Origin: Anastatus disparis
Lineage: Eukaryota; Arthropoda; Insecta; Hymenoptera; Eupelmidae
Length of the DNA stretch: 64,000 nt
Direction: 5' to 3'
Assembly (NCBI GenBank): GCA_017163975.1
Contig: JAFFSR010000364.1
Coordinates: 984,001-1,048,000, forward strand
Part shown: positions 9,921-30,317 of the stretch, piece after piece
Position numbering within the stretch: the first letter of the stretch is position 1
Layout: every line of letters starts with the position of its first letter
The notes under the pieces: model-generated
What the model saw: only the letters and a program-made list of their open reading frames with translations
Databases searched by the model: none
What the model was told of the DNA's origin: nothing
Position numbers and translations under genes: made by a program

Positions 9921-12713
9921 ATGATTAGACTCTTTCTGGATTCTCGCCCCTACTTCCATGTTATAGCTGTAACTGAGACCAAGCTGGGCCAGATTGTTGG
10001 TGACTCTCTGATAGATCTTGATGACTACGTGCTTCACAGGCAGGATCGTAACACTAGAGGTGATAGTGTTGCTTTATATATTCACAACTCTGTTACTTCG
10101 CGGCGCCTTTGTTCTTCTTCTGGTAAATGGAGTGGTAAGCCTGGTCTTCCTGAATATTTGTTTTGTGAGGTTAATTCTCTGGACTTGGCTTCACCTATTT
10201 TTGTTGGTGTAGTCTACAGGCCACCACATGCTCCCTTCTTGGCTAACACAGATTTCATACCTGATTCAACATCGTATATGCATAATTATAGTTCGAAGAT
10301 CATCCTTGGTGATTTTAATACTAACTTGTGCGTTGATTCTGATGACTCTAAGTTTCTTAGAGGTTTGATTACTGAGAATGCACTTTTCTTGGTTCCTTAT
10401 GGCACAACTCATCATACTTATTCTTCTGACACCTGGCTTGATTTGTGTCTTGTCGATGCCAACGACATTGTACTCGACTTTTGGAAGACTGATATTCCAT
10501 TCATTGACGGCCACGATTTCATAGCTGCGACTGTTAAGTCCTCTCTTTCTAAACCTATGCTTAAAGACTTTACCTTCCTGGATTATAAGTCTGTTGATGA
10601 TGTTGCACTCCTTCAGTATTTTCGCTCCTTAAGGTGCACTACATGTGATGGTGATTCCTCTCTTACTGCTCGCCTTGAATGTCTTTACAACCATCTCAAT
10701 GAGGCAATTGCACAATTCGTGCCTGTCAGGAAGGTCAGGCAGGGTAAGGCTCATCGTCCGTGGATCACCTCTGAACATCGTCGCTTGATCGATGAGAGAG
10801 ATCGACTTTATAGACACTACAAACGTACTCGACTGTATACTGACTTACTATGCTATAGGACTGCTCGGGACAAGGCACATGAGTGCATTGAATCAGCTAA
10901 GCTGTTATATTACTATGACAGGCTATCGGATGTTACGGACTCGCGACAGATCTGGAGAGAGCTCAGGAACCTTGGTAAACGTTCTACTGATAATAACTCG
11001 CGACACTCATTTTCTATAAATGAGCTTAATCGATACTTTGGTGGGATTGCGTTTGATCCACTTACCCCTTCTGTTTCTGAGTATGTGAATACTGTTAATG
11101 TAGATGAGCCTTATAAGCCTTTATTCAGGTTTAATGAGGTTACTTTGGAGGAGGTAAGGATGGCAATATGTCATTCTACTTCTCAGGCTAGGGGGTTTGA
11201 TGCAGTCCCTCAGTCTATTGTTTATGGGGCTTTTCCAGTTATTGGGCCCTTGCTATGTCGTATTTTTAATGATTCGTTTCGTGAGTGTGTGTTTCCCTCA
11301 TGTTGGAAGATCTCATTGATTACCACAATCAACAAGGTCTCTTCTCCACGCACTATGAGTGATATACGACCTATTTCCTTGTTGTCATTCATGTCCAAGG
11401 TTCTTGAGCGTCTCGTCCATCAACAACTATATTGTTACTTGTCCACCAGACATCTGTTGGATTCTCATCAGACTGGGTTTAGAACTGGACATAGTGCCCA
11501 AACAGCTTTGCTTAAACTAACAGAGGATATTAGACTCAACATGGACAGACGTTATGTAACTATGCTTCTATTATTTGATTTTAGCAAGGCATTTGACACT
11601 GTGTGCCATGTCACTCTGCTTCGGAAACTAACTTCTCTTGATGTCTCGCACTCTGTTGTCAGGTGGTTTGCCTTTTACTCATCTGATAGACGGCAGTCTG
11701 TTGTTGACTCTGATGGTAATGCATCTGACTTTGTTACTCTGAATACAGGAGTACCACAGGGTTCTGTGCTTGGACCACTTTTATTCTCCATTTTTATTAA
11801 TGACGTTGCTGTCAACTTTCACTCTGGTGTACAGCATTTGATATATGCCGACGCCTTGCAAGTCTATGTGCATTTTTCGATATCTGAACTTAGCGCTTAT
11901 ACTAATCTTGTGAGTGATCATGCTGTTCTCATTTCAAATTGGGCCTCTGATAACCATCTGAAATTGAATGTTGACATAACGAAGGCAATAATTATTGGCT
12001 CCTATTTTCATATAAATATGCTGTCCTCATCACCTGTAACTGGCGTTCCGTTGAACGGTGCTCATATTAGATTTGAGTCCTCTGTTCGTAGTCTGGGTGT
12101 TTGGTTGGACAGTAAGCTTAACTGGAGAGAGCACGTTACACAAGTGTGTAATAGGTCATTTTCTCTGCTTTACAGACTAAACTTCTTTAGAAAGAGCACC
12201 ACGTTTGCTCTTCGTATACATCTTGTAAAAACATTGCTGTTTCCACTTCTGGATTACTGCTGTTTGGTTTACTGTGACCTCTCGGCTGAGCTTGACCTTA
12301 GACTTCAGAGGATCATCAACTCTGGTATACGTTACATCTTCGGTGTAAGTAGGCGTGAGCACATCTCTGCTTATAGGTTCTCATTAGGCTGGTTATCCAC
12401 TGCGGGTAGAAGAAACTATTTTTCTTCTACGTTTCTGTATAAGATGTTCTTATCTTGTACTCCATCTTATTTGTATTCTATGTATCAGTGGAGCCGGCCA
12501 GTGAGGTCCTTGAGGGGTGATGTCAAACCTTTGACCATTCCTTTTTCATTCACTGAGTATCGCCTACGATCGTTCCTGGTCACTTCCTCGCGGCTATGGA
12601 ATGATCTTCCTGCGACATTACGCAACTCATTCTCGCTCATGACATTCAAGACATCCTCATTTGCATACTACCTTGCCTTGGAGAGTAGACCTCTGCTTTA
12701 TGCTAATTTATAA
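9921..12713 (+). CDS. Retrotransposon ORF2: endonuclease-reverse transcriptase, catalytic box altered
   Basis: ORF2 makes the nicking endonuclease and reverse transcriptase for target-primed reverse transcription. The endonuclease begins with 'CHFNANSI' at about 9882, before the first ATG, then has 'AVTETKLG', 'ILGDFNTN' and a degenerate 'GHDFI' where SDH is usual. RT motifs are clear: 'RPISLLSFMSKVLERL', 'LLFDFSKAFDT' (motif A, about 11,570-11,595), 'TGVPQGSVLGP' (motif B) and motif C at 11844-11855. Motif C reads YADA instead of YADD, one base away (GCC for GAC), so polymerase activity should be lost. There is no RNase H domain. The frame stays open upstream through the end of ORF1, so a non-ATG start, reinitiation or frameshift could supply the endonuclease N-terminus. 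Apart from motif C the 930 codons are undisturbed. Confidence 0.85.
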   Translation: MIRLFLDSRPYFHVIAVTETKLGQIVGDSLIDLDDYVLHRQDRNTRGDSVALYIHNSVTSRRLCSSSGKWSGKPGLPEYLFCEVNSLDLASPIFVGVVYRPPHAPFLANTDFIPDSTSYMHNYSSKIILGDFNTNLCVDSDDSKFLRGLITENALFLVPYGTTHHTYSSDTWLDLCLVDANDIVLDFWKTDIPFIDGHDFIAATVKSSLSKPMLKDFTFLDYKSVDDVALLQYFRSLRCTTCDGDSSLTARLECLYNHLNEAIAQFVPVRKVRQGKAHRPWITSEHRRLIDERDRLYRHYKRTRLYTDLLCYRTARDKAHECIESAKLLYYYDRLSDVTDSRQIWRELRNLGKRSTDNNSRHSFSINELNRYFGGIAFDPLTPSVSEYVNTVNVDEPYKPLFRFNEVTLEEVRMAICHSTSQARGFDAVPQSIVYGAFPVIGPLLCRIFNDSFRECVFPSCWKISLITTINKVSSPRTMSDIRPISLLSFMSKVLERLVHQQLYCYLSTRHLLDSHQTGFRTGHSAQTALLKLTEDIRLNMDRRYVTMLLLFDFSKAFDTVCHVTLLRKLTSLDVSHSVVRWFAFYSSDRRQSVVDSDGNASDFVTLNTGVPQGSVLGPLLFSIFINDVAVNFHSGVQHLIYADALQVYVHFSISELSAYTNLVSDHAVLISNWASDNHLKLNVDITKAIIIGSYFHINMLSSSPVTGVPLNGAHIRFESSVRSLGVWLDSKLNWREHVTQVCNRSFSLLYRLNFFRKSTTFALRIHLVKTLLFPLLDYCCLVYCDLSAELDLRLQRIINSGIRYIFGVSRREHISAYRFSLGWLSTAGRRNYFSSTFLYKMFLSCTPSYLYSMYQWSRPVRSLRGDVKPLTIPFSFTEYRLRSFLVTSSRLWNDLPATLRNSFSLMTFKTSSFAYYLALESRPLLYANL

Positions 12714-15684: not shown

Positions 15685-18600
15685 TTGGTATATCATATTG
15701 TAGACAAATATTTTCAACAGGGAGATGGTACTACTACTACTCAGAACCACATTACGATTCATGAAGAATCATCGCGATATTATCGACAATTTAAGTTACA
15801 AGGTAGACAATTAAGAGTGTCAATATTGCCCCCACCACCTAATGCGAATGTGTATACGTGGTTTGAGGCAGCAATAAATGATTTATATCGTCATGTGTGT
15901 GAAAATGCGCGACCTTCAGATTATATCGGTATAACTATAAACTCTGAATGATTTGTTCACGGTTCTTTATGGATTTCTTTTAGACTGGTTCGTGATTTTT
16001 CACCGACAGATCTACTCGAGTTATTAGCTTCTGTAACACAGAATAATGACAATTTTGAAATCGATGATGTTTTAAACGTGAAAGTTAGCATTGTTTCCAC
16101 TCTCGCTAGTCGCTGCTCATGTATATGCTATACGTGGTCAGATGCGCAGTGGTATTCACCATGACAGGTGGAATAGAATAAGACACCACACAGCACAATA
16201 TCAGAAAGTGCAAGCGTTGAAACTTGTCAAAGCTGCGAGAGTTACGATACCCGAAATAGGTTGTGGTATTGAAGAAATAAAATTATTTCAAGAATATTAT
16301 GCACTTTTCGGCGTTGCAATAGTTGTTTATTCTTTTCAAAACTTTGCTCGAGGCTATAAACCACTTTACGATAGTGCACGTTTTGTACACGATGTTGGTA
16401 ATGTAGTTAGACATACCTTAAATATTATGTATTACGAAAATTCTAATCATTACCAGCCAATTTTAAATTTACTCGCAGCAGCTGGCAGCCGTGGCTACTG
16501 CATACCTTATAATAAAAAGTTTAGTCATCAAAAAAATCATAAATGTCCACAAAAATGTTGTAAATGTTTTCAGAGTCCCCCTTGCGATATAAATCAGGAA
16601 AAATAAAATGTATTCAATGCACTAGAGATTTTTACGGTAATGTTTGTCTGGAAAATCATAAAATCTCAAAATCTTTCGATAATTTTCGGTCGGTATGCGA
16701 GAGCATAAAAATTTGTCGTTTGTGCAGTAAAACAGTTCGAATGTGCGATAAAGATCCACATAATTGTAATACGATATTTTGCAAAATATGTAATCGTAAA
16801 ATTCCGATAGAACACCTTTGTTACATGCAACCCTTTATCAGCAAAAAAGGATTTGCAACCAAGAAAAAAAATATACTTTATTTATTTTAAGATTTTGAGA
16901 CTTAACGATCGGAAATTATCTTGGGTGCTGATGGTGAAAAAATAAGTTTGCATGTACCAAACTTGTGTGTTGTACAACAAGTATGTAATTATTGTTTGGA
17001 TGATGAAAATATAACAAATTCTTGCGAAATATGTGGTATACGCCAATACGTGTTTGAAATCGACCCTGTAAAACAGCTAGTTGATTTGGCCTTAGCAACA
17101 AGAAAAAGTTTCAAGCAAATTATTTGTATAGCCCACAATGCACAGGGTTTTGATGCGCAATTTATTCTCAAGCATTTGACAGAACGTACAGATCTTAGAG
17201 ATAAGCCAGATGTAATTTTAAACGGGTCAAAAAAAATCATAATGGAAATTTCAACCGTTAAATTCATAGACAGCTTAAATTACTTACACATGAGTTTAGT
17301 CGCACTACCAAAAGCTTACGGTCTTGCTAATATCGAGAAAGGTACGTTTCCTCATTTGTTTAAAACACCAGAGAATCAAAATTACGTTGGAGAAATGCCA
17401 CCTGTGTGGTCTTTTTCACCAGATTCGATGAAGGTCGATGAACGACGAGAATTTATACAGTGGTATAACGAAAAAAAAAATGAAAATTATATATTTAATT
17501 TTAAAAATGAGATTATAAAATACTGTAGACAAGATGTAAAATTTTTACGATTAGCATGTTTGGCCTTTCGCAAAACCTTCATAGAATGTAATAATACAGA
17601 TCCATTCGTAGAGTGCGCCACCATCGCATTATCTTGTATGCGTGTATATAGAAAAATTTTTTTACAAAAAGACACTATAGGAATCATACCTCAGGGTGGT
17701 TATAGACAAGCAAACAAGCAGTCTATGAAGGCGATGCAGTGGCTGTGTTGGATGGAAAATGTGCTGAATTATCAAATTCGGTATGCTGTCCGAGCTCGAG
17801 AAAAGAGATTTCCCGAGGGCCCTCTAGTGGATGGATACTGCGAACTTGAAAACGGTACGAAAATTGTTTTACAATTCCACGGGTGTTATTGGCATGGCTG
17901 TGTATGGTGTTACACAGTGAACCGTGACTCACGCCTCGTAAACGGTGAAAATATGGACGAACGTTTCGAGAGAACTGCGCGAATATCCGAAAAGATAAGA
18001 AGCCACGGTTATCAACTAATAGAAAAGTGGGAATGTGATTTTGATCATGAGTACTTACAGAACGAAAGTATGAAGACGTATATCGATAATAAAACACGAA
18101 ATTGGCATGAACCGTTGAATCCTCGAGAAGCATTTTTCGGTGGTCGTATAGGTAATACAGTCAAAATTTACGATGCAAAAGAGGATGAGAAAATAAAATA
18201 CGTGGACGTGTGTTCATTATATCCATATATCTGTAAATACGGTCGATATCCCGTTGATCATCCTACTCTTTACGTGGGTGAAGATGAGTGTCGCTCTCTG
18301 GTGGGTCAAACAAATAATATAAGTCACGTTGAAGGTCTTATTAAATGCGAAGTATTGCCGCCGCGAAATATATATCATGCTGTACTTCCTGTTAAAATGC
18401 ATAGTAAGCTTTTGTTTCCGCTGTGTCGACCATGTGTCGAATCAATGTATACCGCAGATTGTGACCATGAAAATCCTGATGATCGAGTTTTTATCAGCAC
18501 GTGGGTTGCTGACGAGTTGAAAAAAGCTGTTCAGATGGGTTATATCATCAGAAAAATATTTGAAATATGGTCTTATAAAATTACTCAGTACAACAAAGTC

Positions 18601-19499
18601 ACGGGTCAGGGTGGTCTATTTCCAACTTATATCGATAAATTTTTTGCTGAGAAAACTTACGCGTCGGGTTACCCTTCGGAATGTACTGACGGTGATGAAA
18701 ACGCGATTGCTCGATATATTGAGGAATTTGTGCAACAAGAGGGCATCAAATTAGACAAAAATCGAATAAAATATAACGCTGGTCTGAGATCTGTAGCAAA
18801 ACTCTGTTTAAATTCATTGTGGGGTAAATTTGGTCAACGAGAGAATATGCCAAAGACTGAAGTGATAGATGATGCACAGAGATTGTTTGAATTACTTTGC
18901 AGTGTCGAGACCGAGGTCGACTCAATTTTACCGATCAATGAGACGACAATTTATGTAAGTTGGCACAACAAAGAATCGGCTGTTGAGCCATCACCTTTGT
19001 GTAACGTTGTCGTAGCCGTTTATACTACAGCCTTGGCGCGTTTAAAACTCTACGAAGAATTGCAACCGCTGGGTGAACGTGTATTGTATTACGATACTGA
19101 CTCTATTGTGTATGTAAGTCGCGTGGGTGAGTACGATGCGAAAACAGGGCCGTTCTTGGGTGACTTGACCGACGAATTGGCCTGTTACGGTCTTGGCACA
19201 AGCATCACATCATTTGTCTCTGGAGGACTCAAATTTTACGGATATAAATATTTGACACCAGATGGCATTGAAGGATGTGTTTGCAAAATCAAGGGTATAA
19301 GACTTAATTCGTCGGTGAGTCAGAAAATAAACTTTGATTCTATACGAGATCTTATTACTGGTAAAATACCGCCACTTTTTGCACGCGGTTTCACGATGTT
19401 ATAACACGACCTGAATGTAAAATATGCGAACCTGTGTACTCAAAGAGACGATTCATAAATAACGAGATTAGCTATCCATACGGTTATAAGTCTAATTAA
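15685..19499 (+). pseudogene. pPolB: Protein-primed family B DNA polymerase (PolB) of Polinton 1, broken
   Basis: This was the replicative polymerase of the element. The N-terminal region carries 'HEESSRYY', 'LPPPPNAN' and 'YIGITI', then a Cys/His-rich zone (16,520-16,850). Exonuclease motifs follow: DFET (16891), NAQGFD (about 17,140) and YCRQD (about 17,520). Polymerase motif A is DVCSLYP (about 18,205), motif B has NSLWGKFG (about 18,811) and motif C is YYDTDS (19087-19104). All catalytic boxes survive. The frame is broken by an in-frame TGA (15949), a frame change with apparent loss near 16,090, a frameshift near 16,585, TAA at 16888 and 16903 flanking exo I, and a frameshift near 19,400. 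After the last one the true C-terminus (ending PYGYKSN) runs to 19499. The gene is dead but only mildly eroded. Confidence 0.92.
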
Positions 19500-19688
19500 A
19501 AATAAATTATCGTAAATATATTATCACTAAAGCGAATATATGATATAGGATAAAGAGAGAGAATTAAAACACAAACTATTTTAAAATAAATTTTTATATT
19601 TTATAACAATGTAAAACCAAAAAATAAATTTATTTTCTATTAATTAAGTAGTCATCAATTTTTTTCAAAAGCACAGGTTCCAGAATAA
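19500..19688. other. PolB-PPP1R15-like intergenic space
   Basis: AT-rich spacer between the convergent ends of PolB and the minus-strand PPP1R15-like gene. It contains AATAAA-type signals on both strands (for example near 19,500 and 19,623) that could serve as polyadenylation sites. Confidence 0.4.
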
Positions 19689-19844
19689 TCAACATTTTTC
19701 CACCCTCATTCTGAATCTTTCTCTATCACGAGCCGCTTGCTCCCACTCTCCACGTCGCGCTGTACGACTCGCATAGTCCCACACGCGTATTACATGAATT
19801 TCCGGCTTACCCTCTTTGAAATGCACTTGTTTTGTTTGATTCAT
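19689..19844 (-). CDS. PPP1R15/GADD34-core-like small protein
   Basis: This 51-codon frame lies on the strand opposite to the rest of Polinton 1, between PolB and the ATPase. It begins with an RVxF-type PP1-docking site ('KQVHF', residues 6-10). About 13 residues later comes the stretch 'VWDYASRTARRGEWEQAARD' followed by RERF and a basic RV. The spaced Trp, Ala-Arg-x-Gly, Trp-Glu and Ala-Arg-Asp-Arg-x-Arg-Phe pattern is the hallmark of the PPP1R15 (GADD34/CReP) C-terminal core, which bridges PP1 and actin-bound eIF2alpha; several DNA viruses carry the same core. The frame stops soon after (TGA 19689-19691). The +1 frame stays open to 19630, so a one-base indel in an A-run may have shortened it. 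A TATA-like site (20021-20034, minus) and a possible 5'-UTR intron (19851-19937) lie upstream. Function is inferred. Confidence 0.7.
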   Translation of the reverse strand: MNQTKQVHFKEGKPEIHVIRVWDYASRTARRGEWEQAARDRERFRMRVEKC

Positions 19845-20020
19845 CGTTCACTGTACTTTTTGTAGACTCTCTTTTCTATAAAATTGTTGAGAATCAAAAA
19901 TTTAAATCTGATTAATTCTTTGATAAAAATTTATTACCTTTTTCATTTTCTTGGTTATTGCTCACGATAGCAGCACTTTTTCAAGACTAACCAGTACTGA
20001 CCGTTTACCAACGCTTTTAA

Positions 20021-20034
20021 TTTTATACTATAAA
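20021..20034 (-). promoter_or_regulatory. TATA-like element for the minus-strand PPP1R15-like gene
   Basis: On the minus strand the sequence reads TTTATAGTATAAAA. It is 177 bp before the ATG at 19844, and the distance shortens to about 90 bp if the candidate intron 19937-19851 (GT...AG on the minus strand) is removed. Confidence 0.4.
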
Positions 20035-20307: not shown

Positions 20308-20985
20308 ATGGATGTTTGCAGGTGGGTGCATCCGTGGACTTTGATGATTTGTGGACCCAGCTCGTGTGGTAAAACAGTATTCGTGAAGAATTTTTTGCAT
20401 CACATTGATCGCATGAGTGATACAAAATTCGAGCGTATACTCTTGTACTATACCGAGTGGCAGCCAATTTACAAGGAGTTGGCCGAGGGTATCGAATTTC
20501 ACGAGGGTTTACCAAAGAGCGAAGACTATGCCAATGATCCATGAGCAAAACTCTTGATTCTCGACGATCTGATGAGAGAATCGTCCAACAGAGCTGTAGT
20601 AAATCTCTTTACCAAAGGCAGTCATCACAATAACTTGAGCGTCATCTTTATCTCGCAAAATCTCTTTTATCAAGGTCAGCGAGAAATTTCTTTAAACTCT
20701 AATTACATCGTGGTATTTAAAAATCCGCGCGATCGAGCGCAAATAAATCATCTGGCGCGCCAAGTCTGCCCCGAGGAGCCTCGTTTTTTGCAAGAGGCAT
20801 ATCTCGATGCCACAGCACAACCACACGGCTATTTGTTCATAGATCTGAAACAGGGTACGCCTGAAAACGTGAGATTTCGTACTTGTATATTTCCGTTCGA
20901 CAAACATCAGTACGTTTATGTACCTCGTTGCAAATCCATAAAAGCTGGTGCTCGCTCGAATAATGTACCAGTCGTGCGATTGTAA
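20308..20985 (+). pseudogene. A32-like genome-packaging ATPase of Polinton 1, one nonsense codon
   Basis: It is the FtsK/A32-type motor that pumps DNA into the capsid. Walker A is GPSSCGKT (residues 16-23) and Walker B is LLILDDL just after codon 79. A glutamine sensor region ('VIFISQNLFYQ') and the usual C-terminal 'NYIVVFKNPRD' follow. The frame is continuous over 226 codons except for a TGA at 20542-20544, just before Walker B. An Arg CGA turned into TGA by a C-to-T change is the simplest explanation. The ATG at 20308 fits the family's short N-terminus. The stop codon overlaps the next gene's ATG by one base (TAATG). Confidence 0.9.
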
Positions 20986-21332: not shown

Positions 21333-22141
21333 TTTTAGTACCGCAAGAGTGCTTGGAGCAACAGCGGCTGCAGCAGCAGCACGACGTACCAACTACCAAT
21401 CAAACAACACCACCATCCAGTGTCCAGACACCTGGTACAGCCACGACACGCCTTGACGAAGAAATGAGTAAAATTTTACATTCTATAGGTGATAAACGTC
21501 AAAAATCTCTGCAATATCAACAAATCTTGCAGCGTTACTTGCATCTAAAAGAGGAGGAGAAGGATGAAAATAGGGGTATAATACGTCCAAACGAGACAAC
21601 ATTATTAGAAACGGAAACGACGATGGGTACAGACAATAATGACGAAATCGACGACGAACAGCTTGTCCAGTCAGTACCGCAGAAATTTCAAAGTAATGCT
21701 AGACATCTCATTAGATATTTGCGACAAGCTGGTAATATTGAATGGGATAGTCGCGGTATAATCAAGCTAGATGGCACTGTTGTCGAGGGTGCTAATATTG
21801 TCGATTTAATAAACGAAGCTATGAGAAGTAGAAAAAGGCCGCCACCACGCGGATACAAACAGTTTGCACGCGTCTTGCGACAAGTTAGCATACCTCGAGA
21901 ATTCATTGGTAACGATCAACTGTATCGTACGATTGCATCTCATAGCCCTGATTTACCGCTGTCATCGTCGTCAGAAAACGAAAGTTATTATTCTTTAACA
22001 GCTACTGGTCTAACGAGCGTAAAGGAGAAAGAAGTTGAGAGTGCGAAAAAGCGTAAAAAAGTTGGTAGCGAGTTGGCAGCTACGGCATCAACCCCTGTAA
22101 AAAAGAGTCGCCTCGAACAGCGAAAATGGGACCGTATGTGA
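21311..22141 (+). CDS. Conserved Polinton protein, PY-like (putative minor virion protein)
   Basis: The 276-residue protein has a Gln/Thr-rich N-terminus and a predicted helical stretch ('LDEEMSKILHSI' to 'ILQRYLHLKEEE'). A folded C-terminal part carries 'SNARHLIRYLRQAG', 'WDSRGIIKLDG' and 'GANIVDLINEAMRSRK', then 'RGYKQFARVLRQVSIPREFIG'. These are recurring features of the PY-type protein of insect Polintons, always placed near the ATPase and integrase. The C-terminal tail is basic and nuclear-localisation-like. It overlaps both neighbours (22 bp and 16 bp). Function unknown; the frame is intact. Confidence 0.7.
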   Translation: MEYARKMILVPQECLEQQRLQQQHDVPTTNQTTPPSSVQTPGTATTRLDEEMSKILHSIGDKRQKSLQYQQILQRYLHLKEEEKDENRGIIRPNETTLLETETTMGTDNNDEIDDEQLVQSVPQKFQSNARHLIRYLRQAGNIEWDSRGIIKLDGTVVEGANIVDLINEAMRSRKRPPPRGYKQFARVLRQVSIPREFIGNDQLYRTIASHSPDLPLSSSSENESYYSLTATGLTSVKEKEVESAKKRKKVGSELAATASTPVKKSRLEQRKWDRM

Positions 22142-22635
22142 AAGCATGGAAGGAAGTGATGGAGAGGAAGGAGGAGGAGGAGGGGAAGAAAACTGGTACT
22201 TTTATAGACCGATTGATTTCAGTTGTGCCCTTTGAACTGCATCTACCAGGCTACCAGTTTCTCGGCCTTGACACGCATCTCGAAGAGCGTCTCAAACGTG
22301 GTCAGAGAGGAAAAAATCCTCTTGACAATGCCTGTCTAGAGCACGATATTTCATATTCAAATAAAAAAATAACGAATCATATGAAAGCCGACAGACTGCT
22401 GGCTGAACGAGCATTTTCACGCATGCTGTCGGAGACTGCGGATGGTAATAAAAAGACTGCAGCTGGTATTACTGTTTTGTGCATGGTCAGCAAAATTGCG
22501 TTTGATAAATTTTTGAAATGCATTAAAAATACATTTAAAAGACAGCAAAAGAGAGAGAAAAAGCTAGTTTGTAAGAGGGGGAGGAGGAGGAGCAATGAAA
22601 AAGAAGAAGGAGGCAAAAAAGCCGGACGATCTTGA
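22126..22635 (+). CDS. Phospholipase A2-like protein with degenerate calcium loop
   Basis: A parvovirus-VP1-type PLA2 domain is seen at residues 34-110: 'ELHLPGYQFLGLDTHL' (calcium-loop region) and 'LDNACLEHDISYS' with the catalytic pair His73-Asp74. Such domains are thought to breach endosomal membranes during entry. In the calcium loop the usual Y-x-Y-C-G-P-G is replaced by YQFLGLD, so the second loop glycine is Asp, which should weaken calcium binding. Compare the canonical loop in the Polinton 2 homologue (62386-62796). The C-terminus is a Lys/Arg-rich tail. The frame overlaps both the preceding gene and the integrase. The open frame is intact, so the loop change is a substitution, not a break. 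Confidence 0.8.
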   Translation: MGPYVKAWKEVMERKEEEEGKKTGTFIDRLISVVPFELHLPGYQFLGLDTHLEERLKRGQRGKNPLDNACLEHDISYSNKKITNHMKADRLLAERAFSRMLSETADGNKKTAAGITVLCMVSKIAFDKFLKCIKNTFKRQQKREKKLVCKRGRRRSNEKEEGGKKAGRS

Positions 22636-23641
22636 GCATTATTACTATAATCTTTCTGCACCTTCAGCGTACGCTGGTGCTCATCTACTGAAACACGTGA
22701 AACCCAAAAAATTTGATAACAATACCATTGCCAAATGGTTGGAGAGTCAGGATGCACATACCTTACACAAACTCGTGAGACATCGTTTTCCTCGTCGACA
22801 TTACAACGTTTTTAGCCCCTTTGAAGTGTGGGAAGCTGACTTGGCAGATTTTAGATCACTTAAAACCTACAATGATGGGTACAGCTATATTCTCATTGTC
22901 ATTGATGCACTTTCAAAGTTTGCCTGGGCAGAGCCTCTTCTCGACAAAACCAGTCGAAGCGTCGCTGTAGCATTAGACAAAATTTTATCACGATGTAATG
23001 ATAGACATCCTATTTATCTACAGACTGATAAAGGTAAAGAGTTTATCGGTCGAGAGGTGCAAGAGGTGCTAAAAGAGATACATATTACCTATCGAGTCGT
23101 CAGAGGCCCTGATATAAAGGCAGCCATTGCCGAACGCTTTATTTGAACTCTCAAAGGTTGTATCTGGCGATACTTTACTCATTTGCGCACAAGACGTTAT
23201 ATAGATGTTTTGCAAAAAATTGTGACGTGTTACAACAAGTCGTGGCACAGTGCCATAAAAATGCCCCCTCCCAAAGTCAACTTATATAATGCTCACGTGG
23301 TACGTCAAAATTTGACGTTGCGTTACAGCGAAAAACAGCCGTTTCGAGTAGCTAAATACAGCGTTGGCGATCTGGTTCGTGTCAGTCGTGCCAAGACACC
23401 CTTCAGGAAAGCATACGAGGGTGGCTGGACTCTGGAGCTGTTTAAAATTATAAGAGTCGACACAAGACAACAACCACCCGTCTATATTTTGACAGATCTT
23501 GATGGAAAAAAAATTGACGAATATTTTTACGAAGAACAGTTGAGCAGAGTGCGCAAAGATTTAGATAGCGAAGCGTTTGAGGTTGATGAGGTTTTGAAGA
23601 GCAAAGGTAGGGGGTCGAAAAAACAATATTTGGTCAGTTAA
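22595..23641 (+). pseudogene. Retroviral-type integrase of Polinton 1, one nonsense codon
   Basis: It is the DDE integrase that inserts the element. The N-terminal 'YYNLSAPSAYAGAH' precedes the catalytic core. The first Asp is in 'WEADLADF' (D82), the second in 'LQTDKGKEF' (D145) and the Glu in 'AAIAERF' (E180), so the triad is present with retrovirus-like spacing. A TGA at 23144-23146 (codon 184) interrupts the otherwise continuous 349-codon frame, again compatible with CGA to TGA. The C-terminal part has an SH3/chromo-like 'VGDLVRVSRAK' and 'GWTLELFKI'. It starts inside the PLA2 gene. Confidence 0.92.
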
Positions 23642-25050: not shown

Positions 25051-26202
25051 ATGGCGCTGTTGCATACAGAATCTTGTCAGTCGATCAAGTCGGAATTATC
25101 ACTTTTTGAATTACCCTCGACACAGACTGCAATTAAAGGCTCTTACTGAGTTCAGTACAAACCGATATCTTCACTTAACGACCAATCACCAATTGAATTT
25201 ACCATCCCTGGCAACACTGAGTATCTAGACTTGGCTCACACAATGTTAAGTGTGAGTGTAAGTGTAACATGCACTCGTGCTGAACCACCTAAAGATCCGA
25301 ACGTTGGACCAATAAATAATCTTTTGCATTCGTTGTTCAATCAAGTCGACGTGCTATTCAATCAGAAACCTGTTTCACCACCAAACAATGCTTATGCATA
25401 CAGAGCTTACATTGAAACATTACTAAATTATGGTCCAACAGCTAAAAAGTCTCATTTAACGAGTGGATTGTGGTACGATGATACAGCAGGGAAAATGGAC
25501 GATACCACAGGTGGTAATACAGGTCTCAGCCAGCGTAAAGCGCTTATGGTTGACAGAAAGGTTGATTTACTCGGCCATTTACATTGTGATGTTTTTAATC
25601 AAGACAAATTATTACTGGGTGGTGTTGAAGTTAGAGTAAGGCTCGTGCGTTTTCGTGATGGTTTTTGTCTCATGGATCCCGCTGGTGCTTTCACAGTAAA
25701 TATTACAGAGGCTACGCTTTTTGTGCGTCGAGTAAGATTAAATCCTTCACTCGGTTTTGTTGAGAATAAAGCTTACAACGGAGATAAAAGTCTTAACCCG
25801 TTTAGTTTCAAAAATTTTAATATAAATTTTTTATGTCTGTACGTTGATGGAATGCAAGTGCCATCGAAACCCTTACAGCCAGATTTCAAAAAAAGCAAAA
25901 TGTACGTTGATGCTTATCATACACTTTTTTCCGGCACTGGTATTCACTTTATGAATTCAGGCAACTCGATTACCCGTAAAGACTATCCAAACGGTTACTG
26001 CCTATTCGCTTTTGATTTGACACCTGATTTATCGGCGAGTGATGGTAGTCATTGGAATTTGATAAAAAATGGTAATGTACGAATCGATGTTAGATTCGAC
26101 GACCCGCTAGAGGGTTCTTTAAATTGTATAATTTATGCTGAATACGACAATTTGCTCGAAATTGACTCGTCGAGACAGGTTGTCGTGGATTATAGCGGTT
26201 AA
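25051..26202 (+). pseudogene. Major capsid protein (double jelly roll) of Polinton 1, one nonsense codon
   Basis: This is the hexon-like capsid protein. The frame starts 'MALLHTESC' at 25051, contains the strongly conserved 'VGPINNLLHSLFNQ' and 'NAYAYRAYIETLLNYG', then 'SHLTSGLWYDDT', and ends with 'IIYAEYDNLLEID'. These are hallmark segments of insect Polinton MCPs. A TGA at 25147-25149 (codon 33) breaks the frame after 'GSY', where a Trp TGG is the likely ancestor. Everything else is open to 26202 (about 383 residues with the stop). It lies directly after the pVI-like gene and 93 bp before the next ATG. Confidence 0.9.
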
Positions 26203-26294
26203 GTAGTAGTGGTGGGGATATAGTTCTCGCTATTTAAGTGGAGCAAAGCCATATTTATCATCTCAGTCGGCGAGCAACTTTAATTGCAAACAGT

Positions 26295-26840
26295 ATGGAC
26301 GTGGTGATTGACGTGCAGTTTTTAAAGGACAACAAAAACCGTTTGATTCCAAAGGAGGTGGCTGTACTTTCTATTCATAAAAACTTCATCGCTCATTGGA
26401 TTGTGGCGCCCCCTTGTAATTTAAGACGCTTACCTAAAAATGCTTTGAGACAGAACAATCGGGTGACACTGAATCATCATGGTCTGGAGTGGTACAAAGG
26501 TGATATATCGATAAAAAGATTATACAAAAATTTGGAAGATATTTGCAAGCATTGTCGTGTAATTTTCGTGCGAGGTCAAGAAAAACTTGAACTACTTTCC
26601 AAGATCACCACCTGTAAGATTGAAAATTTAGAAAAACAAGATTGTCCAGCTTTTAGAAATTTAAATTTCAGCAGTGTACAGTGCATGCATCATTACATAA
26701 AATCATCTTATTCAAATTACGTGTGTGCTCTAAATAACGCTGCTAATCTGAAACAGTGGCTACTGAAACTTAACCCCAGCTTAAAATCGCTGATTGTGGA
26801 AGAATTTTTCGAAATTCTCCGCAATGAATTCAAAAGAGAG
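26295..26840 (+). pseudogene. Unnamed conserved Polinton protein, 3' end cut by a DNA transposon
   Basis: The start 'MDVVIDVQF' (ATG 26295) is preferred over an upstream GTG because the homologue in Polinton 2 (58893-59390) begins 'MEYLVDMQGF'. Shared blocks are VD-x-Q at the N-terminus, KE-x-A, HHG/YHG followed by W and GDI, a V-x-V-x-G strand, and a late C/HH with AL-x-N. The early Asp in a beta-strand could suggest an RNase H-like or exonuclease-like fold, but the usual Asp-x-Glu reads Asp-x-Gln, so catalysis is uncertain. From 26838 on, the reading frame continues into the transposon's inverted repeat to 26945, so the last ~35 residues are foreign. Function unknown. Confidence 0.65.
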
Positions 26841-27283
26841 TCAGGCTACCTGAAACGGGCCACTAAAAACCCACCGTATAAATTTAATAGTTTTTTTTTG
26901 CAAATTGTTAAAGGTTTATATGTTAAAAATAAAGTCCTAAAGTAATTTTTGAAAATTTTCATTCTTCTAAAAGTTATTAGCAAACTAACCTCTAAGCACT
27001 TTTTTTTCAAAACACGATTACTCAGAGACTATCAGATAAAAGTTAACGAAATTTTATTTACAAATTCAAAAATAGCTAAAGAATCGAATAGAATATAAAT
27101 AAATTAAAAAAATATTAATTATTAATAAAAAATTAGTTTTGCAATAAATAAATTGAAATTTATGACACTTCTCGTAGGGCTAGGAAATTTTTTTTCTCTA
27201 ATCATTTATTCCTTAGACCTTCCTTTACTTATAATCGCAATAAAATTTGGGGGATCTCTATTAGGAAAAGATTTACAAATTTT
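26838..27283 (+). repeat. Left terminal inverted repeat of the 3.5-kb transposon
   Basis: Matches the reverse complement of 29876-30317 nearly throughout, including the stretch around CTTCTCGTAGGGCTA. Reading frames inside it (27153-27482 and on the minus strand) are incidental. Confidence 0.8.
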
Positions 27284-27559
27284 TGAATATCACGTAGCGA
27301 TGATAGACGCGACAGTGAAAACGGTTTTGTTGCTCGCGGCCGCATTTGAATCGCTTAATAAACAAAAGCTAATCGTTTCTTTTGCAAAATCAAACATGCA
27401 TTTGTTAATATTCATTAATGTTATTGCTATCATCATGACACCACCCCTAAGTGTTGTAATCCATTCCAAAAAAAAATCATAGTTGTTTTCGGAAAAATTT
27501 AACTTTTTTATCAAAAAATCGTGACACAAAGTTCAGTGCTTTATTTGGTTTATTCGTTT

Positions 27560-29695
27560 GTGCTTCTTGTAGACGACAACTGTATTTAAATAAAAATTCT
27601 ATTCAATTTGAGGTTAATAATACAACAAATAAGCAAAATAAAGAGCACGTAGAAGAAGTAAATAATGAAATAGAGGAGTCAGAAAAAGAAGAAAATGATG
27701 AAGATTTTGTCTGCAAATTTGTTGATAATAATATCAAAAGACAGAAATTAGCATCTTCATTTGAAGAATGGATTGCAGCTCCGGCTAAAAAAAGATGCTC
27801 CTTAATTTGTCGAATGATGATCAGAAGATATTGCAGAAAACAATTAATAGTAGCAATTTGAATATCTTTAATAAATCTGAAAATTGTACATGGATAAGTA
27901 AAGTCAAAGAGGCATTGTCTCACGCATCTACTCGACATCAAAAATTGTTCTTTTAATGACATTACCTAATGAATGGTCAATTCGAAAAGCGGCGAAAGTA
28001 TTTGATGTTAGTAGGCGCATGGTTTCTACTGCAAAGAAGTTGAATAATGATAAAGGTCATGATGTTCTGCCAGACGTAAGAAAAGGTCGAGCTATGAGTG
28101 TAGATCTAGTTGAAAATGTTAATAATTTTTTTCTTTCGGATGAAGTCAGCCGAGTAATGCCAGGAGTGAAAGATATCAAGTCAGTTATTGTTAATGGCAA
28201 AAGACATCTAGAAACGGTAAGCAATATAAAAAAAAACAATGATAGTGATTTTTAAACAATCAGAAAGTTGTCAATTTATTTCTATGGTATTTTTTAAAAT
28301 TAAATTTTTTTTCTGGAGAAATTTATGTAATTCGATTTTTATATTTTTTATATGTAAAAGCAATATTTCTTTTTAGAAACGTTTGTTGTTAAGCAATATA
28401 AAAGATTTACATGAAGATTTTTTTAGCAAAAATCCAAATGAAAAAATTTCATTGGCATCTTTTAAAGCGCTAAGACCTCAACAGTGCATTCCAGTTGGTG
28501 CTAAAGGAACGCATAATGTTTGCGTTTGCAAAATCCATGGCAACATTCGACTTAAATTTAGAGGAATCAAAGAAGCATTTTCTGGAAAAAAATCTGATTT
28601 TAAATTAACTTATAGAGAATTCTTAAATAATATATGTTGTTTAAATCTATCTGAAGAATGGTTTCTGGGAAATTGTGAAAAATGTCCTGGTACTCGTCAA
28701 ATTTTTAAAGATTTGAAAACGTCTTTACAAAAATTAAAAATTAAAAAAATTTCTTATAATCAATGGCTTACAACTGATAGGTAATTATATTAACAGATAT
28801 ATTTATATATTTTATGATAATTAGCTTTTTACAACCTAATTATTTTTTTAGATGTCAATTACTTCATAAAACTGAGACTGTTAATATTTTTCTTAAAAAT
28901 CTTGCATCCGATTTACCCGATGTTTTGAAACATGATTTCATTGCTCAGACTCAAGCAACGTATTTAGAACAGCTAAAAGAAAAACTTGAAGATGAAGAAT
29001 TCATTGTAACCTTAGATTTTTCTGAAAATTATTCATTTCATGTACAAGATGCTATACAATCGCAACATTGGTGCAAAGACCAAGCTACGTTACATGTATA
29101 CGTGATTTATTACAAACAGGATAAAGTTATCAAAAACATTAATTATGTTGTTTTCTTTGAATACGAAAATCACGACGCCACTGGAGTGCATCTGTACAAT
29201 TCAAAGATGATTGAGTTTTTAAAAAGAAAGTTTTGTGCACAAAAAATTAAAAAAATTTATTATTTTTCGGACGGAGCTGGCTCCCAGTACAAAAATAGAT
29301 TCAATTTATCAAATTTACTGCATCATGAAAAAGATTTTGGAATCAATGCAGAATGGCATTTTTTCGCTACTGCACACGGAAAAGGTGCTTGTGATGGTAT
29401 CGGTGGATGTGTGAAAAGACATGCATACAGAGCCAGTTTACAAGATAAGACGATAACTACAACAAAAAAACTGTTTGAATGGGCATCTGATTTCTTCAAA
29501 AAAATTAGTTTTGAGTTTTGTTCACTAAATGAATATAAAAATCATCAGAAAAAATTAGAAAATCGCTTTAGTTCGGCAAAAACAATTGTTGGAACACGTA
29601 AATTCCACTGCTATAAGCCATATGACATGGAAAAATTAGAATGTAAAATTTTTTCAAATTATTCAAAATCTGCTGTAATAAATGTTAAAAAATAA
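27560..29695 (+). pseudogene. Transposase-like gene of the 3.5-kb transposon, broken
   Basis: Coding segments are recognisable from about 27,560. The N-terminal part has a C-x-x-C ('VCASCRRQ') and an acidic stretch, with a frame change near 27,790 and another near 27,950. Then follow 'PNEWSIRKAAKVFDVSRRMV' (helix-turn-helix-like) and 'VIVNGKRH'. Two introns fit the frame: 28217-28376 (phase 0) and 28781-28851 (phase 2). The C-terminal domain holds candidate acidic residues in 'TLDFSENYSFHVQD', 'YFSDGAGSQYKN' and 'EWHFFATAHGKGACDGIGG'. This pattern occurs in a widespread, usually uncharacterised animal protein family. A DDE-type transposase is likely, but the superfamily is not identified. Frame changes in the 5' part make this copy inactive. 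Confidence 0.65.
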
Positions 29696-29875
29696 TTGAA
29701 CTTTAATTCTACAATAAATAGTATAGTATTCTAGGAACAACAGACTTACGATTTATTTAACTTATTTTTCAAAGAAGAAAAGGCGTGATGCATAAGGATC
29801 CATACAACGGTAAAGTACTAGAACGTGCGCCGCCATCTTTGATGCGTTAAACATTCACACCGCAGATTTAAAAAA

Positions 29876-30317
29876 TTTGTAAATCTTTTCCTAAAAGAGA
29901 TCCCCAAATTTTATTGCAATTATGAATAAGAGAAAGTCTAAGGAATAAATGATTAAAGAAAAAAAATTTCTTAGCCCTACGAGAAGTGTCATAAATTTTC
30001 ATTTATTTATTGCATGGCTAATTTTTTATTAATAATTAATATTTTTTTCAATCTTTTTATACTCTATTCGATTCTTTAACTATTTTTGAATTTGTAAATA
30101 AAATTTCGTTAACTTTTATCTGATAGTTTCTAATTAATAGCGTTTCGAAAAAAAAAGTGCTTAGAGGTTAGTTTGCTAAAAACTTTTGGAAAAATGAAAA
30201 TTTTCAAAAATTACTTCAGGACATTATTTTTAACATATAAAACTTTAACAATTTGCAAAAAACAGTATTAATTTTGTATGGTGGGTTTTTAGTGGCCCGT
30301 ATCAGATAGCCTGACTC
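29876..30317 (-). repeat. Right terminal inverted repeat of the 3.5-kb transposon
   Basis: Reverse complement of 26838-27283 and ends CCGTATCAGATAGCCTGACTC. The last base before Polinton sequence resumes is about 30317. Confidence 0.8.

What the first reader, a model, noticed from the sequence alone, without database searches (positions are those of the whole stretch)
19689..19844. PPP1R15/GADD34-type core encoded inside a Polinton
A minus-strand 51-codon ORF has an RVxF-like PP1 docking site and the Trp / Ala-Arg-x-Gly / Trp-Glu / Ala-Arg-Asp-Arg-x-Arg-Phe core that defines PPP1R15-family eIF2alpha phosphatase recruiters. Such cores occur in some large DNA viruses as counter-defence against eIF2alpha kinases. 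I know of no description of one in a Polinton. Its position between PolB and ATPase, with its own TATA-like element, suggests a captured host gene serving as an accessory factor.
Basis: partly seen in the sequence, partly recalled or inferred. Interest (0 to 1): 0.88.

Follow-up and report, generated by a model that had tools for sequence, protein, structure and literature searches.

The report
Stress-response off-switch gene in Polintons
A virus-like mobile element in this genome, probably an insect's, carries a small gene resembling the cell's own switch for restarting protein synthesis after stress, a trick so far known from larger viruses; the copy in this window is damaged, but the genome holds hundreds of related copies, many of them uninterrupted.

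Summary
The minus-strand ORF at 19689-19844 matches human PPP1R15A (phmmer E=2.1e-6). A profile of 13 cellular PPP1R15 proteins gives it 64.8 bits (E=3.4e-19); the best of 287,384 ORFs from shuffled windows gets 11.9. It lies between PolB and ATPase of a decayed Polinton.

The 51 codons are not the native gene: the C-terminal tail sits next door in another frame. In 40 fetched sister copies the protein is 62-105 aa, 71 aa in 27. Three capped genome searches list 327 matches besides the cellular gene. The 40 copies lie antisense to PolB and/or ATPase, 35 with both flanks. Another lineage carries it in sense behind a double-jelly-roll capsid gene.

The gene is constrained (dN/dS 0.05 between two lineages). 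It groups with a compact clade that includes a Megastigmus wasp adintovirus (Eupolintoviridae) protein, apart from the genome's own PPP1R15 (AU p=0.0016). It is probably a PP1 recruiter that dephosphorylates eIF2alpha during Polinton replication. No activity was tested. This window's copy is probably defective.

The parts
19689..19844 (-). PPP1R15-type core ORF (51 aa): RVxF-like KQVHF, W22, ARRG, W34-E, ARDRERF; truncated member of a compact Polinton gene family
19633..19722 (-). C-terminal tail of the same gene, lying in another reading frame (profile positions 48-65); in most of the 40 fetched sister copies the tail is in frame
20021..20027 (-). TATAAAA, putative core promoter of the gene
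   Evidence: same 27-nt spacing to TCAGT in 18 of 20 fetched lineage-A sisters and 0 of 20 lineage-B copies
19996..20000 (-). TCAGT, resembling the arthropod initiator (that name is recalled); 27 nt after the TATA
19629..19634 (-). AATAAA, possible polyadenylation signal
16921..19404 (+). Polinton PolB, main open part; ORFs upstream of it in other frames may be its broken N-terminal part (inference)
   Evidence: PF03175 1e-38
20308..20544 (+). Polinton ATPase, N-terminal part with P-loop; a stop separates it from the rest
20554..20985 (+). Polinton ATPase, C-terminal part
22126..22635 (+). Phospholipase A2-like ORF (Pfam Phospholip_A2_4)
   Evidence: PF08398 1.1e-6
22595..23146 (+). Retroviral-type integrase core; the probable continuation 23183-23641 is a separate ORF (inference, no Pfam match)
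   Evidence: PF00665 4.5e-12
25231..26202 (+). Probable capsid gene (resemblance to Maverick capsid proteins is recalled; no Pfam or PDB match, structure model failed)
   Evidence: weak similarity to a double-jelly-roll ORF, phmmer E=0.007 within a 12-protein set
26238..26945 (+). ORF of 235 aa, homologous to the ORF that directly precedes the PPP1R15-type gene in lineage C
   Evidence: E=2.4e-16, 29%

Best explanation
The feature is a decayed copy of a compact PPP1R15-type gene that belongs to Polintons (Eupolintoviridae-type elements). The intact gene encodes a stand-alone protein, 71 aa in most copies read here, made of little more than the PPP1R15 functional core. Its N-terminal part should dock the host phosphatase PP1 (RVxF and following residues). 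Its C-terminal helix should bind G-actin and eIF2alpha and aim PP1 at phospho-Ser51. Expressed during Polinton excision and replication, this would undo the eIF2alpha-kinase stop on translation and keep viral proteins being made. Shown here: homology, position, copy number, constraint, and separation from the host gene. Inferred: expression, PP1/actin/eIF2alpha binding, and the counter-defence role. The window copy lacks the tail in frame. By analogy with ASFV DP71L, where the tail motif LSAVL is needed for eIF2alpha dephosphorylation but not for PP1 binding (PMC5346070, abstract), it would at best still bind PP1.
For: Homology; a profile of 30 compact proteins (the window ORF one of them) finds human PPP1R15A at E=7e-17 and DP71L at 3.7e-9. 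Contact residues named in PMC8500838 (passages), matched by my own count on the alignment: Trp582, Arg587, Asp588, Arg591, Phe592 and Arg595 correspond to W34, R39, D40, R43, F44 and R47. Predicted fold of relative P0002: extended N-terminus, then helices 22-30 and 32-70, block means of pLDDT 93-95 over residues 41-70. Polinton linkage; Megastigmus wasp adintovirus relative. Intactness elsewhere: of the 150 best-scoring genome matches, 130 have an open frame of 64 aa or more and no stop inside the match (stops counted by hand; frames). Constraint: lineage A x B pS 0.468, pN 0.035, dN/dS 0.05 over 400 pairs, against 0.16-0.27 for PolB and about 0.20 for the ATPase. Not the host gene.
Against: No expression or activity data. 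Human Arg594 (eIF2alpha contact) is M46 here, and the Arg612/HR tail position of cellular proteins is not kept in the compact clade. Pfam's gathering score is not met by the window ORF. Copies used for dN/dS were chosen by protein similarity, which favours conserved ones; at nucleotide level the core is no more conserved between lineages than most of its surroundings (0.88 against 0.86). Of the 150 best matches to the lineage C protein, 68 by my hand count carry a stop inside the match, so many copies are broken or end earlier. Only one relative outside this genome has a named adintovirus context. No terminal inverted repeats of the window's Polinton were found. The first, larger tree did not separate compact from cellular rows cleanly.
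Confidence: 0.8

Rival explanations
1. Recent fragment of this host's own PPP1R15 gene, copied into one Polinton without function.
For: The cellular core is a separate exon beginning at the RVxF (CAG|GTGCGT, L049), and the compact gene covers much the same stretch.
Against: 327 further matches listed in the genome; own host exon 58% identical with an HR...RF tail instead of PVLLKK; compact and cellular rows split with 100/99 support in the 46-row tree, and the tree joining own host and own Polinton copies is rejected, AU p=0.0016; dN/dS 0.05.
Confidence: 0.02
2. Selected PP1 recruiter, but for another substrate or role (for example cell cycle, capsid or PolB phosphorylation), not eIF2alpha.
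For: Human R15A Arg594 and Arg612 equivalents are not conserved; activity untested.
Against: The residues that contact eIF2alpha (Arg587, Asp588, Arg591 equivalents) and actin (Phe592, Arg595) are kept (residue roles); ASFV DP71L, with a similar tail, acts on eIF2alpha.
Confidence: 0.15
3. Host-domesticated family: the copies serve the insect's own stress response rather than the Polinton.
For: Very many open copies in one genome.
Against: The fetched copies lie with Polinton genes: 40 of 40 with PolB and/or ATPase, 4 of 4 lineage-C copies next to the p245 ORF; an adintovirus has a relative; constraint is seen between element lineages.
Confidence: 0.05

Closest known systems
Cellular PPP1R15 (GADD34/CReP; insect PPP1R15)
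   Same: RVxF, the IH (phi-phi) pair, Trp, ARxG, WE, ARDRxRF and the helical core
   Different: Cellular proteins carry long N-terminal regions and mostly an HR tail (19 of 21 rows from named insects and fish); the compact ones are stand-alone, mostly start a few residues before the RVxF and end in PVLLKK-type tails
ASFV DP71L (short form)
   Same: 71-residue chain in the PDB, a core with a similar tail (EELLSAVLLRQKK aligned to the compact tail); needs the tail to act on eIF2alpha (PMC5346070, abstract)
   Different: Encoded by a large cytoplasmic DNA virus; weaker similarity (39 bits); not in my trees
Choristoneura granulovirus gp036 / HSV-1 ICP34.5
   Same: Viral co-option of the same roughly 70-residue core (PMC4394352, passages; it writes coGV-gp036, the full virus name is recalled)
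   Different: Other virus families; sequences not compared here
Megastigmus wasp adintovirus hypothetical protein (P0007)
   Same: 56% identical over 94% of the window ORF, same compact type and tail, Eupolintoviridae
   Different: 85 aa, unannotated; its gene position could not be seen
Dasineura jujubifolia toursvirus 2a protein (P0073)
   Same: No HR tail; falls on the compact side of the 46-row tree
   Different: Gene of another DNA virus; long branch, placement unsure

Membership tests
PPP1R15 core family | RVxF PP1-docking motif at the start of the core | tested here: met
   K-Q-V-H-F, residues 5-9; V and F nearly invariant over 30 compact proteins
PPP1R15 core family | Trp / ARxG / WE / ARDRxRF core, significant to known members | tested here: met
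PPP1R15 core family | Actin and eIF2alpha contact residues (human R587, D588, R591, F592, R595) | tested here: met
   R39, D40, R43, F44, R47 by my count on the alignment; residue roles from PMC8500838 passages
PPP1R15 core family | Human R594 and R612 (HR tail) equivalents | tested here: not met
   M46 at the 594 position; HR in the tail in 0 of 2 named virus and 0 of 2 Nasonia rows against 19 of 21 named cellular rows. PMC8500838 says the Arg612 contact proved less important (passage)
PPP1R15 core family | Complete C-terminal tail in frame (window copy) | tested here: not met
   tail in another frame; 27 of 41 copies, the window included, read 71 aa
PPP1R15 core family | Pfam PF10488 gathering score | tested here: not met
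   window 14.7 of 26.1 bits; of 8 relatives scanned 2 pass (P0036, P0041)
PPP1R15 core family | Binds PP1 and promotes eIF2alpha-P dephosphorylation | not testable with these tools
   needs a bench assay
Polinton/Maverick (Polintoviricetes) | Family B DNA polymerase of the viral/organellar type | tested here: met
   PF03175 1e-38
Polinton/Maverick (Polintoviricetes) | Retroviral-type integrase | tested here: met
   PF00665 4.5e-12
Polinton/Maverick (Polintoviricetes) | Packaging ATPase | tested here: inconclusive
   P-loop ORF, weak AAA and A32 matches only
Polinton/Maverick (Polintoviricetes) | Double-jelly-roll capsid | tested here: inconclusive
   window ORF: no Pfam match, model pLDDT 28; lineage C neighbour: PF21738 3.2e-83
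Polinton/Maverick (Polintoviricetes) | Terminal inverted repeats | tested here: inconclusive
   no pair bracketing the element found

The most novel reading that the evidence does not exclude
Compact PPP1R15 is one ancient, travelling virus module: a single-origin clade of eIF2alpha-phosphatase recruiters that insect Polintons exchange as a cassette (antisense between PolB and ATPase in two lineages, in sense behind the capsid in another) and share with large DNA viruses such as toursviruses. This would mean that Polintons face an eIF2alpha-kinase defence in insects and behave as replicating viruses rather than quiet transposons.
Probability: 0.4. Interest if true: 0.9.

Novelty: new variant of a known kind. 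Interest (0 to 1): 0.8.

Why it matters
Polintons are treated either as transposons or as suspected viruses whose particles and host interactions have hardly been seen (PMC8097293 and PMC7805220, abstract starts in the listing). A constrained gene aimed at the host translation stop, present in hundreds of copies, is a direct sign that they express proteins against a host defence. It makes two questions testable: whether insects (which as far as I recall lack PKR) use PERK or GCN2 against DNA viruses, and whether large DNA viruses and Polintons trade counter-defence genes. The compact clade also gives many natural sequences of a minimal PP1-actin-eIF2alpha recruiter.

Tried and rejected
Pfam gathering threshold: not met by the window ORF, so profile and E-value evidence was used instead. 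A first protein search with the 51-aa ORF found one relative; a two-row profile found 14; a length-padded 15-row profile found 107. IMG/VR scans with the ORF, the capsid ORF, the ATPase part and a 30-row profile found no relatives; the tool notes that records near the window's own genome may be left out. Structure of the capsid ORF failed, pLDDT 28, so no fold search was run. Terminal inverted repeats were not found; the first blastn script had a listing fault for inverted repeats and was redone. A 5' intron was considered from the sequence and not pursued. The N-terminal part of P0016, a fusion, has no clear window counterpart (best E 0.18). Pfam gave no name to the lineage C p245 ORF or the window p235 ORF. 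The adintovirus description paper (10.1093/ve/veaa055, PMC8502044) is not held, so I could not check whether it mentions this gene. Recent capture from this host was rejected. A genome search with the lineage C capsid did not complete.

Full report
CHECK OF THE OBSERVATION. The minus-strand ORF at 19689-19844 exists as described. phmmer against PDB sequences gives PPP1R15A (7nzm_C 2.1e-6, 4xpn_B 4.5e-6), ASFV DP71L (0.0023) and PPP1R15B (0.04) as its best four matches. Against 1422 window ORFs of 25 aa or more, the human R15A segment finds only this ORF with significance (1.1e-9). A profile made only from 13 cellular PPP1R15 proteins of named insects and fish gives it 64.8 bits (E=3.4e-19); the best of 287,384 ORFs from 200 dinucleotide-preserving shuffles of the window gets 11.9 bits. 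Pfam's PP1c_bdg model scores it 14.7 bits, below its 26.1-bit cut-off.

THE ORF IS CUT SHORT. A profile made from P0001-P0014 with the window left out (these rows were themselves found by searches that included the window ORF) scores the ORF 79.1 bits at profile positions 2-47. The second-best match in the window is the ORF 19633-19722 in another frame, at positions 48-65 (11.1 bits, E=0.019). That tail piece fits the compact profile better than the cellular one (11.6 against 0.7 bits). In 41 copies read from the genome, the window included, the protein from the same ATG is 71 aa in 27; the window's 51 aa is the shortest, and the other 13 run from 62 to 105 aa. Copies with the tail in frame therefore exist and the window copy is a damaged one. 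Its Polinton is damaged too: the ATPase range has an internal stop, the integrase region is spread over more than one ORF, and an inverted-repeat element lies at 26838-30317.

THE NEIGHBOURHOOD. PolB (PF03175 1e-38), integrase (PF00665 4.5e-12), a phospholipase A2-like ORF (PF08398 1.1e-6) and a P-loop ATPase ORF with only weak matches are present. That 25231-26202 is a Maverick capsid gene is recalled and not shown: no Pfam match, no PDB match, and a failed model. No terminal inverted repeats were found.

THE SAME GENE ELSEWHERE IN THE GENOME. The genome is 939 Mb in 399 contigs. The ORF as query gives 150 matches, the cap, at 90-100% identity. These are the best-scoring of 1077 candidates, so conserved copies are favoured. 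Of the 150, 146 are listed with open frames of 64 aa or more and 2, the window among them, with less than 60; 17 carry a stop inside the match, by hand count, which leaves 130 with both a long frame and no stop. A beetle PPP1R15 query gave 121 matches. Merged, the three lists hold 328 distinct places on 166 contigs, of which one is the cellular exon. Of the other 327, 45 were read: the window, 40 more and 4 of lineage C; the rest are matches only. The 40 are the 20 best-scoring places after the window (lineage A) and 20 of the roughly 90% group (lineage B). In 40 of 40 the gene is antisense to PolB and/or ATPase; 35 have both flanks in the expected order, 4 lack PolB and 1 lacks the ATPase within the 3 kb on each side that I fetched.

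A SECOND PLACE IN THE ELEMENT. In lineage C (L050-L053, 61% identical to the window ORF) the gene is in sense, directly after a 245-aa ORF found in 4 of 4 (only its second half in L051). A double-jelly-roll capsid ORF precedes that ORF in 3 of 4, in part only in L053 (Pfam PF21738 3.2e-83). The 245-aa ORF is homologous to the window's 235-aa ORF at 26238-26945 (E=2.4e-16). Only about 1.5 kb on each side could be read; no PolB or ATPase match lay there, and PolB and integrase of lineage C were not seen.

RELATIVES OUTSIDE. Three protein searches found 1, 14 and 107 proteins. Among those with names are a Megastigmus wasp adintovirus hypothetical protein (P0007; NCBI places the virus in Eupolintoviridae), a Dasineura jujubifolia toursvirus protein (P0073), two short Nasonia '15A-like' proteins, a partial Cotesia congregata protein (P0013), and 21 rows from named insects and fish that I take as cellular.

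COMPACT AGAINST CELLULAR. The tail separates them: HR after the core in 19 of 21 named cellular rows, 0 of 2 named virus rows and 0 of 2 Nasonia short rows (all 108 rows examined). Among unnamed rows 16 of 52 short and 24 of 30 long have HR; in three of those short ones the HR lies right after the core and not in the tail motif, and the other 13 look like pieces of cellular genes. On the core alone, leave-one-out scoring of 68 rows (5 of the 73 non-window rows set aside) gives the window +9.9 bits for compact over cellular. The cellular rows range from -14.6 to +2.4 and the compact rows from -6.2 to +14.5, with 35 of 36 positive. Those 73 rows were chosen for coverage from 107, with eight near-duplicate fish or long rows dropped. 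A first tree of 74 rows on 69 columns put the cellular rows in two separate starred groups among the short ones and so did not show one compact clade. A second tree of 46 rows that I selected, with own-genome rows added, splits 21 rows (13 named cellular, 5 long unnamed, own host exon L049, and the short rows P0050 and P0093) from 25 compact rows at 100/99; the window, A, B, C, P0007, P0073 and Nasonia fall on the compact side. P0050 has no HR tail and yet lies on the cellular side. The tool warns that the columns are few and the bootstrap had not settled. Holding own Polinton copies and own host together is rejected (AU p=0.0016). Single origin of the compact clade is therefore likely but not proven.

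CONSTRAINT AND EXCHANGE. Over the first 50 codons, lineage A x B (400 pairs) gives pS 0.468, pN 0.035 and dN/dS 0.05. The same lineages give dN/dS 0.16 for PolB and about 0.20 for the ATPase. Choosing copies by protein similarity favours low pN, but cannot make unconstrained genes differ at half their synonymous sites with 3.5% amino-acid-changing differences. The core is no island of nucleotide conservation: 0.88 identity against 0.86 in more distant flanks and 0.62 in the 160 nt before the ATG. Unexpectedly, pS of the gene is three to four times that of the adjoining PolB end (0.152) and ATPase (0.120-0.147); whole PolB has 0.300. The stretch from about -300 to +400 around its start is 64-88% identical, while the nearest flanks (-1000 to -301 and +400 to +899) are 92-97% identical; further out there are other diverged stretches, 73-83% beyond -1100 and 77-89% beyond +1700 (5 A and 4 B copies picked by me). 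The lineages are thus mosaics, and the simplest reading is that this gene with its leader has been exchanged between Polinton lineages as a cassette.

HOW IT PROBABLY WORKS. In the human complex the N-terminal half of the core holds PP1, and the C-terminal half holds G-actin and meets eIF2alpha (PMC8500838, passages read). The matching residues are kept except Arg594 (M46), and Arg612, whose contact that paper found less important. An AlphaFold model of relative P0002 shows an extended N-terminus followed by confident helices. In DP71L the tail motif LSAVL is needed for eIF2alpha dephosphorylation but not for PP1 binding (PMC5346070, abstract); the compact tail aligns with it. The intact gene should therefore reverse eIF2alpha phosphorylation, and the window's short form should not. 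That the benefit is escape from a translation stop during Polinton replication is inference.

ORIGIN. The host core is an exon that starts exactly at the RVxF after CAG; PMC4394352 says that the conserved stretch is a separate exon in both vertebrate isoforms (passage). The compact gene covers the same stretch with a few added residues, so capture of that one exon by an old virus is plausible (inference).

NOVELTY. Five paper searches that joined Polinton, Maverick or adintovirus with PPP1R15, GADD34, MyD116, DP71L, PP1 or eIF2 terms listed no paper on such a gene in Polintons, judged by titles and abstract starts; two searches showed only the top 40 of 186 and 15 of 4418. Terms were looked up inside four papers without a hit: PPP1R15, GADD34, phosphatase and eIF2 in PMC11071296; PPP1R15, GADD34 and phosphatase in PMC8363768; phosphatase and eIF2 in PMC11071308; phosphatase in PMC6035795. 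The main adintovirus paper is not held. Viral PPP1R15 cores themselves are known from herpesviruses, ASFV and an insect virus (PMC4394352 passages, PMC5346070 abstract).

Noticed in passing
L009-L048, about -300 to +400 around the gene's ATG: The gene and its leader are far more diverged between Polinton lineages A and B than the PolB end and ATPase beside them (pS 0.47 against 0.12-0.15), as if swapped in as a cassette.
   Followed up: partly
window 26838-30317: A 3.5-kb element with about 450-bp inverted repeats (91%) sits in the right part of the Polinton region; its ORF 28814-29695 has no Pfam match.
   Followed up: no
P0094 (database protein, 280 aa): A PPP1R15-type core at the N-terminus of a protein with BIR and RING domains (IAP type): translation-stop and apoptosis control apparently in one protein, or a gene-prediction fusion.
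   Followed up: no
P0016 (database protein, 191 aa): A compact core fused behind about 120 residues of another protein (precomputed PF26634), possibly the in-frame upstream gene.
   Followed up: partly
P0025, P0036 (Nasonia vitripennis): Two short proteins annotated as PPP1R15A-like have the compact, not the cellular, tail and fall on the compact side of the 46-row tree; they may be Polinton genes mistaken for host genes.
   Followed up: partly
window 9921-12713: Open 930-aa ORF that looks like a LINE reverse transcriptase left of the Polinton (family recalled, no search made).
   Followed up: no
G000 places of about 45% identity to P0067 with 83-aa frames, e.g. C69:822881, C373:4033133: Probably a further diverged compact lineage, context unread.
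   Followed up: no
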